IMG/VR virus record: IMGVR_UViG_3300040807_002188
Coordinates: 1 to 32,527 of that record
Length of the DNA stretch: 32,527 nucleotides
Source of the DNA: a virus
Strand: one strand, 5' to 3'
Under the pieces are notes generated by a model that worked only from the letters and a program-made list of their open reading frames with translations, did no database searches and had not been told where the DNA came from. Numbering within the stretch: position 1 is the first letter of the stretch; every line of letters starts with the position of its first letter. Positions 21,670 to 29,525 of this stretch are shown here, piece by piece. Both the position numbers and the translations under genes were made by a program.

Positions 21670-22968
21670 TTATCTTTTATATGCTAAGATACTTCTAATT
21701 TGATGAATTGGTGCAAAAATACCAGTGTACTTATAAACTTTGCCTTTATACACAAAGGTTATACCTTCGGTTGGTACAATGTTTTCTAATCCACCTACTG
21801 CAGCAACTCTACTTAACTCATGTTCTAATTTTTCAACATCAGTAGCATCACCATTCTTTTTGATTGTATTAATTGTATCTTCAATCTCTTTTCTCATCTG
21901 TTCTCCAGCCTGTGTTGGATTTGCTGACAAGAAAGCCTCCATATGCTTCATCATCTCTGTCCCAACCTCAAGGAAAAGATTTTCAAGAGGAGCATAGATC
22001 TTTTTCTTAATCATTTTACCCTCTTTTTTCTCAAGATCAGTGTACCACTTAGCGTTATCTCCAAGATCCGCCTTAATTTGACGAGCATTATAACTCTTGT
22101 CAATGTCTCCAAGTCTTCTTGCTAAACCTTCAACAGACTCTTCTGGAATGGTAACTCCATCCCTTTTAGCTAATTCCTGTACCATGTTTTTAGCTGCACC
22201 CATTACAAAGTCCTGAACTGTTGAGTCCAGTGTAATTCCAGCATCTTGCATGATCCCTTTTAGTTTGTCATTATAATACTTTGCTCTTGCTTTAGTATTC
22301 TTAAATGGCTTAATAGGAATGTCCTGTGGTCCACGAACATAGAACATTTCTTGAGCGGCTGCATTTGCATCAGCAATCATCCTTCCAAGATCACGCCCGG
22401 CTTGTTTATCCTCTCCAACTACATTGCCGTCCTCATCATATTCTACAATACCATGGAAGACTAATAGGTCTTGGCCATAAGGAACTGTGTTTTGCGTAAC
22501 TGGCGTCATAATCTCAACGCTTGCGAATTTCTTACCCTCGTCAAACATCCTTTCTTTATCCGCCGGAGAAAGTGCTCCAATTGAATTTTGAAGATCGCGC
22601 ATTGCTGCATTATATGCAATTTCAATGTCTCCTCTGTCTTTAAATTTTGCGGCAAGATCAGCTGCTGTCATTGCTTCTGCTCCGGCATTTTTAAGATGGC
22701 TCTTATTTCTGGCAGCAATTAATTGACCATTCTTCCATGAAATTGAAAGTTGCTGACCATCTGTCTTTTCTTGCACGAAGTTTTCTGGGCCAAATGCACC
22801 TTCAACTGTAGAGTCAATCATCTCCTTAACGTCCTTCATTGTTAGACCTAGGTCCTCGAATGGATGTGTTAAGTGACCATATGCTCCACCTTCGTTAATA
22901 GATTCGAGCCCAGTATCCCTGAGCTCTCTTTCTGTTAAAAATTGTTCGTATGTAAATAGTTTTTTCAT
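21670..22968 (-). CDS. ligase-like nucleotidyltransferase with capsid-targeting-like N-terminus
   Basis: A 432-residue protein starting MKKLFTYEQFLTERE, with further INE-G at 24-27. VQEKTDGQQLSISW holds a K68-x-D70-G71 motif I of covalent nucleotidyltransferases (RNA/DNA ligases and capping enzymes). KFASVEIMTP (E152) can be motif III-like, and EGITFVYKGKVYKYTG near the C-terminus resembles motif IV. GHLTHPFEDLGL before motif I recalls a family of uncharacterised proteins in marine T4-like phages that have a Lys-x-Asp-Gly core and an adjacent His-Met-x-His-x-Glu-Asp element. It probably forms a lysine-AMP intermediate; the acceptor is unknown. It starts one base after the stop of the 467-aa gene. 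Confidence 0.68.
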   Translation of the reverse strand: MKKLFTYEQFLTERELRDTGLESINEGGAYGHLTHPFEDLGLTMKDVKEMIDSTVEGAFGPENFVQEKTDGQQLSISWKNGQLIAARNKSHLKNAGAEAMTAADLAAKFKDRGDIEIAYNAAMRDLQNSIGALSPADKERMFDEGKKFASVEIMTPVTQNTVPYGQDLLVFHGIVEYDEDGNVVGEDKQAGRDLGRMIADANAAAQEMFYVRGPQDIPIKPFKNTKARAKYYNDKLKGIMQDAGITLDSTVQDFVMGAAKNMVQELAKRDGVTIPEESVEGLARRLGDIDKSYNARQIKADLGDNAKWYTDLEKKEGKMIKKKIYAPLENLFLEVGTEMMKHMEAFLSANPTQAGEQMRKEIEDTINTIKKNGDATDVEKLEHELSRVAAVGGLENIVPTEGITFVYKGKVYKYTGIFAPIHQIRSILAYKR

Positions 22969-26601: not shown

Positions 26602-27665
26602 AGATCCAATTGACTTGATGTGAAATACTCGTCCATCCTTTTAATAGCTGGATTCTTTAATTCAAAACATTTAATTACTAAGTCGTTTAGATCCTTTATA
26701 TCATATGTATCTAATTTATTATCTTTTAAAAATTTAGACCACATAAATACAGCTCTGCCCTTCTTTAGTTTTTCCATCATCTTTTTCTTACCTGTTTCGT
26801 CATTATCAAACATATAACGAACGGTTGCCATTTGATCGAACTCTTCAGTGTTTCTTCCGGCAGTTGCAAGTGCAAGACTATTAGTCATAAACTTAGCATC
26901 GATCGGTCCTTCAAAAATAGTAACTGGTCGTTGGAAATTAATTTGCATAATTCCAAATAGTGTCGACAGTTTTGTTATCTTTTCAAGCTCTTCTTTGCTA
27001 ACTTCTAATTCCTTACCTAGCTCTTCATATAATTTTGGAAGGTCATATGTTAGGTATCTTTGTCCCTTTCCTTTCATTCTTCGACTTTGTGCCGACATAA
27101 TCTTGCCATCACTGGTAAAGTTAAGAATCCAGAGACGGTTGTCTCTTGGACTAAATAGGAACTCTTCACTTTTTTTATGAAGTAGTCTTCCTTTTAGATA
27201 GAGCCAAATCCAATCACCGGGTTCTATTTCTCGGGCACCAAAGCCCTTTTTGAATTCTTCAATAGGTATTGCTAAATCACTTACACTTTGAAATACGGAG
27301 TGTGTTAACGTATCGGCCTGTGAAGTTACAGACCTGTTGTGTTTGATATAGTCAATAATAGTAAATGAATCCTCTGAACTGGGAAGTCTTACCTCATTCT
27401 CACGGAGAAGAGTTTTAAGGTCAGTGTGATACCCACAGTTATAACAATGATATTGAAGAGTGTCCCAGTACATGTTACCCCTCTTCTTTGTATCATCATT
27501 ATGCGAATCCCCACAATAAGGACATGCCATAGTAATTCTACCAGGCATGTCCTTTAGCATTTGCTTGTTGGGATTTGAATGTGCTGTTAGACATACGTCC
27601 TTCAGCGCTTTCATAATCTTTAATCTAAGCTCTTCAGTAAGCTGTGGATTAGATGTCGAGGTCAT
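26589..27665 (-). CDS. 61: gp61-like DNA primase
   Basis: Primase that works with the gp41 helicase to start Okazaki fragments. A zinc ribbon is formed by C48, C51, C74 and C77 (CPYC and CYNC). The TOPRIM core shows FEGPIDAKF (catalytic Glu) near residue 245 and FDNDETGK (DxD) near 285. The length of 358 residues matches T4 gp61 (342). The start overlaps the gp32 gene by 17 bases. The order 32 / 61 / 73 aa / uvsY / uvsW groups replication and recombination functions. Confidence 0.94.
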   Translation of the reverse strand: MTSTSNPQLTEELRLKIMKALKDVCLTAHSNPNKQMLKDMPGRITMACPYCGDSHNDDTKKRGNMYWDTLQYHCYNCGYHTDLKTLLRENEVRLPSSEDSFTIIDYIKHNRSVTSQADTLTHSVFQSVSDLAIPIEEFKKGFGAREIEPGDWIWLYLKGRLLHKKSEEFLFSPRDNRLWILNFTSDGKIMSAQSRRMKGKGQRYLTYDLPKLYEELGKELEVSKEELEKITKLSTLFGIMQINFQRPVTIFEGPIDAKFMTNSLALATAGRNTEEFDQMATVRYMFDNDETGKKKMMEKLKKGRAVFMWSKFLKDNKLDTYDIKDLNDLVIKCFELKNPAIKRMDEYFTSSQLDLWYV

Positions 27666-28560
27666 CTAGGAAAGAATCTAGATCATCATCACTTGAAACT
27701 TCAGTGGTTGAAGATTCTACAGTTCCAGCTGTTTCTGCAACTTTCTCTTTTTTCGGAGCAGCTTTCTTAGTCTCTTTTTTCGGAGCTGAAGAAGTTACTT
27801 CAGAGATTGCATCACCTGGATTTAGATACATCTTTAAAATTCCATTTACGAAATCACGAGTTTCACCATCCCATGCTTTGTACTCATAAGCTGCAAGTGA
27901 AGGTGCGCTTTCTAGTTCTTCTTTAATTGCAGCCATTGACTCTTTAGTACGTTCTGCTGGAGAACCATTTACATCAATTGCTGAACGAGAAGAAGAGAAC
28001 TTCGACTTATCATAGTTATTATATTCACCTTGACGAGTAATAATTAACTCAAAGTTTTTACCTTCAAATAGGTCAAATACTTGAGTTGGTTCGCCAAAGT
28101 CTGGTTTCAATTCTGCGTCAATTTTCTCTTTGATCTTGTAACCGAACTTGTAAATCATGTAAGTTCCTTCCAAGTCTGGATTCTGTGGATCCTTAATAAT
28201 CTTAATTAGAGAATAGTATTGTTGACGTCTTTTAAGTTTTTCTGATGCTTTACGATCAACTGCTGAATCAGAGTTGCGAAGCTTCCAGAATACGTCTGCG
28301 ATTGGGCATTTTTCACCAATTGAACTTGGAGAATCTACCAATTTACCGTCACCGTTTGAGTCTGTCAACCAGTGTACGTATTTTTGAACTAGAGAATTAC
28401 GAGGATTCTCTGGATTTGGAACGAAGCGAATTAATGCTTTGTAAGTTCCGTCTTTACCGTCGTCAGCCGTTGGTTTATAAACCTCGCTAACTGTGTTTGT
28501 TGTGGGCTGATGCGTTTCAACGTCTTCTACACCCAAATTAAAAATGTCAAAATCTGCCAT
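27649..28560 (-). CDS. 32: gp32-like single-stranded DNA-binding protein
   Basis: Coats single-stranded DNA in replication and recombination and recruits partners through its acidic tail. KALIRFVPNPENPRNSLVQK and YVHWL at about 41-65 correspond to the OB-fold core. The tail is acidic and ends DDDLDSFLDDLDI, the hallmark of T4 gp32. Before it lies an Ala-Pro-Lys-rich linker (about 258-275). Only one cysteine (C85) exists, so the zinc knuckle of T4 gp32 (H64, C77, C87, C90) cannot form. Its length (303) equals T4 gp32 (301). A long structured leader precedes the gene, and AAAGGA lies about 12 bases before the ATG. Confidence 0.92.
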   Translation of the reverse strand: MADFDIFNLGVEDVETHQPTTNTVSEVYKPTADDGKDGTYKALIRFVPNPENPRNSLVQKYVHWLTDSNGDGKLVDSPSSIGEKCPIADVFWKLRNSDSAVDRKASEKLKRRQQYYSLIKIIKDPQNPDLEGTYMIYKFGYKIKEKIDAELKPDFGEPTQVFDLFEGKNFELIITRQGEYNNYDKSKFSSSRSAIDVNGSPAERTKESMAAIKEELESAPSLAAYEYKAWDGETRDFVNGILKMYLNPGDAISEVTSSAPKKETKKAAPKKEKVAETAGTVESSTTEVSSDDDLDSFLDDLDI

Positions 28561-28640
28561 GTCTTTAATTTTCCTTTAAATTTTTGTTAAACTGTTAATT
28601 ATATACTTCTAAATGACAATGTTTCACTATACTCAAAAAA

Positions 28641-28728
28641 TCATCGCATCAATTAAAAACCTATCGCGGTTAGCGTAGTCATAGAACTGACCCTTATTAT
28701 TTTTGATGTGATGAAACGTGAATAATAA
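28641..28728 (-). promoter_or_regulatory. candidate pseudoknot in the gp32 mRNA leader
   Basis: On the minus strand, TTATTATT (28728-28721) pairs with AATAATAA (28701-28694), an 8-bp stem. Inside its loop TCATCACATCAA (28714-28703) can pair with TTGATGCGATGA (28652-28641) at 11 of 12 positions. These interlock as an H-type pseudoknot. The 80 bases from there to the gp32 ATG look AT-rich and unstructured. T4 gp32 represses its own translation by binding a leader pseudoknot and spreading toward the ribosome site, and this layout fits that model. An alternative pairing of GTTTCA and TGAAAC (28712-28717 with 28621-28626) competes. No folding energy was computed. Confidence 0.45.
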
Positions 28729-28745
28729 TTATCCATCATCATATA

Positions 28746-28754
28746 TTATATATC
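28746..28754 (-). promoter_or_regulatory. GATATATAA promoter-like box in the gp32 leader region
   Basis: GATATATAA lies 194 bases before the gp32 ATG, directly after an inverted repeat CCCA...AAGGTT / AACCTT...TGGG at 28754-28785. A second weaker core, GTATATAAT, is near 28604-28597. If the first is used, the mRNA includes the pseudoknot. The rest of the 28561-28871 gap has only a 29-codon frame and no convincing gene. Confidence 0.4.
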
Positions 28755-28819
28755 CCACGAAAGGTTTGTTTCAACCTTACCTGGGACTTATTTTATATTT
28801 TTTTATGTGATTATGAAAC

Positions 28820-28847
28820 AAAAAAGGAATGCTTGCATAAAACCTTT
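28820..28847 (-). terminator. possible intrinsic terminator after the RuvC-like gene
   Basis: On the minus strand, AAAGG and CCTTT flank an inner ATGC-AA-GCAT hairpin, followed by TTTTTT. The stem is interrupted by an internal loop, so strength is uncertain. Position 25 bases after the RuvC-like stop fits a terminator. Confidence 0.45.
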
Positions 28848-28871
28848 AAGTTCTTTGAAGGAGAGATAAGG

Positions 28872-29525
28872 TTACTTGAGCGGCGGCTTAGAAATCATAG
28901 CTGCTAGGAAGAAAGCATCGACTAGGTCGTCAATAGGTTTAGGGATCTTTTTCCCAAAGTCTTGACCCTTGATCCACTCATAAAAAGGACTCTTCTCGAG
29001 ATTTTCGTCCCCTATTCCATTATTAAAAAAGACTTCAAAGAGCTGAGACTTATTCATGTTTCCCTTCCCAGCAAACTTCTTTATCGTGGTTGGAGCAGCA
29101 GTCTGTAGATCTTCTGGTTTCAGGGTCTTTAAGAGCTTTAACTTGAGAATAGCGGCTCCGGCTGCCATATCAATCATGTTATTAGTTCCCATCTTTGACC
29201 CATAACTGGTCCCTTCAAATGCAATTGTAAATGAGTCTCCTACAAAAGATTCCTGTAAGACAAGATTAATTATATCGTCTGCCATTCGATCGTATCTTTT
29301 AATCTTTGCAAGCTCTGCACTTGAGAACTCTTCATCATTACTAAAATCTGGCTGACTAACAAGAGTTACGTCCTTTAGGAGACCTATCTCTTCTTGGAGT
29401 TTCTGGTCATTCTTGGTCCCAGTCCCTGGTTTCATGTATGCTATAAAATGATACTTTTTACTTTTATCATTATAGATACAAATTCCTGGAGAATTAAGCG
29501 AAAAATCGACTGCTAAGTAATTCAT
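28872..29525 (-). CDS. RuvC-like Holliday-junction resolvase (RNase H fold)
   Basis: A 217-residue protein with the RuvC acidic tetrad in order: D7 (LAVDFSL), E104 (IAFEGTS), then D200 and D203 (DDLVDAFFLA), the last pair with the same spacing as D138/D141 in E. coli RuvC. TTIKKFAGKGNMNK near 146-159 is the basic segment typical of RuvC before the last acids. It would resolve branched DNA before packaging. T4 uses the unrelated gp49 for this, so a RuvC-type enzyme here may replace or supplement it. It shares one base with the stop of the upstream 126-aa gene. Confidence 0.8.
   Translation of the reverse strand: MNYLAVDFSLNSPGICIYNDKSKKYHFIAYMKPGTGTKNDQKLQEEIGLLKDVTLVSQPDFSNDEEFSSAELAKIKRYDRMADDIINLVLQESFVGDSFTIAFEGTSYGSKMGTNNMIDMAAGAAILKLKLLKTLKPEDLQTAAPTTIKKFAGKGNMNKSQLFEVFFNNGIGDENLEKSPFYEWIKGQDFGKKIPKPIDDLVDAFFLAAMISKPPLK

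What the first reader, a model, noticed from the sequence alone, without database searches (positions are those of the whole stretch)
28641..28728. Possible gp32 autoregulatory pseudoknot in an otherwise compact genome
The 311-base gap before gp32 is the largest non-coding stretch here. It contains an 8-bp stem and an interlocking 11/12-bp pairing, followed by an unstructured AT-rich leader to the start. T4 gp32 uses exactly this type of leader to repress its own translation.
Basis: partly seen in the sequence, partly recalled or inferred. Interest (0 to 1): 0.65.

Follow-up and report, generated by a model that had tools for sequence, protein, structure and literature searches.

The report
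Conserved three-way-junction RNA upstream of gp32
Upstream of the gene for a phage single-stranded-DNA-binding protein lies a real, evolutionarily conserved folded RNA, but it is a three-way junction apparently made from its own promoter, not the T4-style pseudoknot suspected, and the gene seems to have a separate promoter downstream of it.

Summary
The 12-nt pairing (28714-28703 with 28652-28641, - strand) is conserved through compensatory change in seven diverged lineages, but it closes a three-way junction with two hairpins. A promoter-like element, GAAAC-N17/18-TATAA, lies between the structure and gp32 (28627-28598). It is present in 63 of 63 distinct ruvC-gp32 intergenic regions and the motif is enriched, on the gene strand only, in a 166-kb relative. 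A second copy (28774-28745) lies just upstream of the folded RNA. The likely primary gp32 leader is therefore about 30 nt and lacks the structure, but it carries UUAAA repeats (2.1 per 45 nt against 0.36 in other leaders), the T4 operator's second component. Most relatives carry a 56-75-codon small ORF between the same two promoters instead of the RNA; the exchange is a single switch on the gp32 tree. No Rfam family matches. I read it as a clade-specific noncoding RNA (or long-leader element) of large marine phages, probably of Bacteroidota. Transcription and function are inferred, not shown.

The parts
27649..28560 (-). gp32-like single-stranded-DNA-binding protein gene
   Evidence: PHROG 224, E 2.3e-41; tblastn to gp32 of over 2000 phages
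28561..28598 (-). AT-rich gp32 leader with UUAAA/UUUAA repeats (predicted transcript start near 28591)
   Evidence: TTAAA 2.14 per 45 nt across homologues against 0.36 in 53 other leaders of the relative G002
28598..28627 (-). proximal promoter-like element P2: GTGAAAC-N17-TATAAT
   Evidence: motif 7 against 0.73 expected in window, 18 against 3.1 in a 166-kb relative, present in 63/63 distinct intergenic regions
28641..28714 (-). three-way-junction RNA core: closing helix 28714-28703/28652-28641, hairpin 2 28692-28688/28681-28677, hairpin 3 28671-28668/28661-28658
   Evidence: same fold in 10 of 10 sequences, permutation tests, covariance model hits, pair counts
28665..28675 (-). tentative short pseudoknot: CGC 28675-28673 with GCG 28667-28665 in the hairpin 3 loop
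   Evidence: suggestive only: p 0.004 against shuffles, 54 of 720 permutations as good
   Evidence: native no better than permuted, 2255 of 5040
28745..28774 (-). distal promoter-like element P1: TTGAAAC-N17-TATAAT, predicted start near 28738
28813..28841 (+). divergent promoter-like element ATGAAAC-N16-CATAAA, pointing at the 3' end of the ruvC-like gene
   Evidence: a loose form of the motif occurs on this strand in 59 of 63 intergenic regions
28872..29525 (-). RuvC-like Holliday junction resolvase gene
   Evidence: PHROG 159, E 1.4e-14

Best explanation
Shown: a conserved RNA fold, a three-way junction with a closing helix of variable sequence and two hairpins, lies on the gp32 strand between two copies of the phage's own promoter-like motif. 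Inferred: the upstream promoter (P1) transcribes this RNA as a separate noncoding unit, occupying the slot that a 56-75-codon small gene has in other members of the phage group. gp32 is transcribed mainly from P2, giving a leader of about 30 nt without the structure. If gp32 represses its own translation, it does so by cooperative binding to the UUAAA-rich leader over the ribosome-binding region, without a pseudoknot nucleation site (RB49 also keeps the repeats without a recognisable pseudoknot). The RNA itself most likely acts as a small noncoding RNA, made or processed from the P1 transcript; its target is unknown.
For: Same fold in all ten sequences; native re-pairing best of 5040; compensatory changes, 0/500 shuffles; model from two lineages finds the window and L002/4/5, second model finds L007, L011, L012. 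Promoter motif enriched and on the gene strand only in G002, both copies in 63/63 regions. Small ORF in the same slot in relatives, one switch on the gp32 tree. UUAAA enrichment in the short leader. T4 and RB49 comparison: PMC535899, PMC3014915.
Against: No transcript data: promoters and starts are predictions. No terminator shared by the lineages ends the P1 transcript before gp32 (a U-run follows the closing helix in the window but not in L007, L013, L018 or L025; sequences), so readthrough into gp32 is likely and a cis role cannot be excluded. Seven lineages only, all from one phage group; L013 is not found by the model. Individual folding energies are only modestly low.
Confidence: 0.5

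Rival explanations
1. The three-way junction is a cis-acting part of a long gp32 5' leader made from P1 (about 178 nt), affecting gp32 mRNA stability, processing or translation, possibly as a binding site for gp32 or another protein.
For: Same strand, directly upstream, no shared terminator before gp32 (sequences); the tandem promoters would give both a long and a short leader.
Against: P2 transcripts would lack it in every lineage; relatives keep the gp32 leader but have a small ORF in place of the RNA.
Confidence: 0.35
2. One reading: a T4-type H-pseudoknot that nucleates gp32 binding and represses gp32 translation.
For: Both stems can be drawn in the window; UUAAA repeats follow.
Against: The first stem does not covary; the second is the closing helix of a nested junction; a promoter lies between it and gp32; the structure ends 81 nt before the start codon with a predicted start in between.
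Confidence: 0.08
3. The folded region is a decaying remnant of the small ORF with no function.
For: The start codons at the small-ORF position survive (ATGATGATG) with short, differently broken reading frames; L019 has a decayed small ORF.
Against: Two-sided compensatory changes across lineages with different helix sequences are not expected of decaying sequence.
Confidence: 0.07

Closest known systems
T4/T2/RB69 gene 32 translational operator (pseudoknot plus UUAAA leader)
   Same: Lies 5' of a gp32 homologue; unstructured A+U-rich leader with UUAAA repeats up to the start codon.
   Different: Conserved fold is a three-way junction, not a ~28-nt H-pseudoknot; it ends 81 nt before the start with a promoter-like element in between; gp32 binding untested.
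RB49 gene 32 leader (UUAA/UUAAA repeats, no recognisable pseudoknot; PMC535899)
   Same: UUAAA repeats kept without a T4-type pseudoknot.
   Different: RB49 is not reported in that paper to have a structured RNA between tandem promoters upstream.
Rfam structured RNA families
   Same: A conserved, covarying intergenic RNA is a familiar kind of thing.
   Different: No family reaches its gathering score in the window or 13 relatives; only weak sub-threshold matches.

Membership tests
T4-type gene 32 autoregulatory operator | H-type pseudoknot in the leader | tested here: not met
T4-type gene 32 autoregulatory operator | UUAAA/UAAA repeats between structure and start codon | tested here: met
   2.14 TTAAA per 45 nt against 0.36 in other leaders
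T4-type gene 32 autoregulatory operator | Structure is part of the gp32 mRNA leader | tested here: inconclusive
   A conserved promoter-like element lies between structure and gene; transcripts from P1 could still include it
T4-type gene 32 autoregulatory operator | gp32 binds the leader and represses its translation | not testable with these tools
   needs binding and translation assays
T4-type gene 32 autoregulatory operator | Downstream gene is a gp32 homologue | tested here: met
   PHROG 224, E 2.3e-41
Known Rfam RNA family | Score above the curated gathering threshold | tested here: not met
   0 matches in window and 13 relatives

The most novel reading that the evidence does not exclude
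A previously undescribed phage noncoding RNA with its own promoter occupies, in some lineages, the exact two-promoter slot that a small protein gene occupies in the rest of the group: an RNA-for-protein exchange at the gp32 locus.
Probability: 0.3. Interest if true: 0.55.

Novelty: new member of a known kind. Interest (0 to 1): 0.38.

Why it matters
It adds an undescribed, covariation-supported phage RNA motif and a promoter class for a group of large uncultured marine phages. It also shows that, in this group, the UUAAA-rich gp32 leader is kept while the element next to it is exchanged, which bears on the open question of whether gp32 autoregulation needs a pseudoknot.

Tried and rejected
Rfam at gathering and at E-value thresholds: nothing credible. 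DNA-level search of named phages: no match. Exact motif AACGTYRRCCGCGTAGG in IMG/VR: besides clade members, the matches lack the fold and the promoter context and are taken as chance. CM R1 on 27 other relatives (small-ORF type and L019): no hit. More gp32 queries from lineages L012 and L013: no further RNA lineages. Only one bacterial genome match, a 38-residue piece in a Bacteroidia MAG. The intergenic RNA as a coding region: reading frames from the shared ATG break at different places. A shared terminator: the U-run after the closing helix is not common to the lineages. Alignment A2 held two hand-edited rows (one base left out of L004 and of L013) and was not used for any claim; A1 and A3 aligned the helices out of register and were not used either. 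The small ORF: no credible Pfam or PHROG match.

Full report
What was checked. The gap 28561-28871 between the ruvC-like gene and gp32 (both on the - strand) is 311 nt, the largest between ORFs in the window. The gp32 and ruvC assignments rest on PHROG matches.

Homologues. gp32 and ruvC queries of IMG/VR returned 80 loci each, giving 63 distinct ruvC-gp32 intergenic regions. They fall into two kinds. Ten distinct sequences (seven clearly diverged lineages: window, L002/4/5, L007/11, L012, L013, L018, L025) have a 296-315-nt gap. The others have 368 nt or more; of those read in full, all but L019 carry a 56-75-codon small ORF, and L019 keeps a decayed copy. The small ORF matches no known family convincingly. 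Two further gp32 queries added no more RNA lineages. On the gp32 tree the small-ORF group is one side of a branch (support 99/93), so a single switch explains the distribution; its direction is not determined.

The fold. Each of the ten sequences folds by minimum energy into the same three-way junction: closing helix, hairpin 2, hairpin 3. Individual energies are only modestly low (window z -2.0; all between -0.1 and -2.1), so the case rests on comparison. When 5' and 3' regions cut by a fixed rule are re-paired among seven lineages, the native order is the best of 5040. With arms taken from the folds, 2, 1 and 20 of 5040 permutations do as well for the three helices; that version is partly circular. 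A covariance model built from L018 and L025 alone finds L002/4/5 (E about 2e-5) and the window (2.6e-4) at the homologous place. On the resulting alignment 98.9% of cells pair, 10 of 19 pairs change on both sides, no shuffle of 500 reaches this, and sliding partners by 1-3 columns drops pairing to 27-46%; the alignment was fitted to the structure, which favours it. A second model built from those six recovers L012, L007 and L011 as the best hits in their loci (E 0.015-0.02), but not L013. In each genome where it is found at a credible score it is found once. U-G and G-U pair types in the conserved helices fit the - strand as the RNA strand.

Its second stem is the junction's closing helix. Its first stem (28728-28721/28701-28694) is all A-U; across lineages native pairing is no better than permuted (2255 of 5040), and shuffles of the window alone reach its energy in 3.6%. 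A different, very short pseudoknot between the linker of hairpins 2 and 3 and the hairpin 3 loop is possible (p 0.004 against shuffles, but 54 of 720 permutations as good), and is left as a suggestion.

Promoters. GAAAC-N15-18-TATAA occurs 7 times in the window against 0.73 expected. In a 166-kb relative the N16-18 form occurs 18 times against 3.1, all on the gene strand, 10 of them in the intergenic 17%. All 63 distinct intergenic regions have one copy just before gp32 (spacing 17 or 18) and one further upstream. In the window these are 28627-28598 and 28774-28745. The inferred gp32 leader from the proximal one starts near 28591 and excludes the fold. No transcript data are available, so both starts are predictions.

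The leader. TTAAA occurs on average 2.14 times in the last 45 nt before gp32 across the homologues, against 0.36 (maximum 1) in 53 other leaders of the 166-kb relative. A Lak phage gp32 leader also shows many such units by eye. In T4 the operator is a pseudoknot plus UUAAA/UAAA repeats; RB49 is reported to keep the repeats without a pseudoknot (PMC535899; PMC3014915).

Reading. The fold is real; T4-type membership fails on the pseudoknot and is unproven on transcript and binding. I prefer a separate noncoding RNA from P1, with gp32 regulated, if at all, through its short UUAAA leader (0.5); a cis-acting part of a longer gp32 leader is the main rival (0.35). The closest named records by gp32 and polymerase are very large uncultured phages and phages of Prevotella and Chryseobacterium, so the host is probably a marine member of the Bacteroidota (inference).

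Noticed in passing
Window starts at 22968, 21661, 21211, 20744, 20148, 14872, 14560 and 7718 (all - strand); also in L192, L194, L195, L198, L199: Eight window proteins of unrelated sequence begin with nearly the same 13 residues (MKHIKLFEQFINE and variants); at least a dozen more in the 166-kb relative. From memory this resembles the capsid-targeting sequence of T4 internal head proteins with its protease site, which would predict a set of proteins packaged in the head.
   Followed up: partly
28813-28841 (+ strand): A divergent promoter-like element points antisense into the 3' end of the ruvC-like gene, through a conserved GGAGAGATAAGG stretch; a loose form is present in 59 of 63 intergenic regions. 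In L042 and L065 this module is duplicated.
   Followed up: partly
L020, L026, L041, L046 and others, between the two promoters: A 56-75-codon small ORF of unknown family sits between ruvC and gp32 in most relatives; L019 has a decayed copy.
   Followed up: partly
L202 1340-1414 (Prevotella phage Lak-B5): The leader of the gp32 homologue holds a dense run of TTAAAG units, like the gp32 leader of this group.
   Followed up: no
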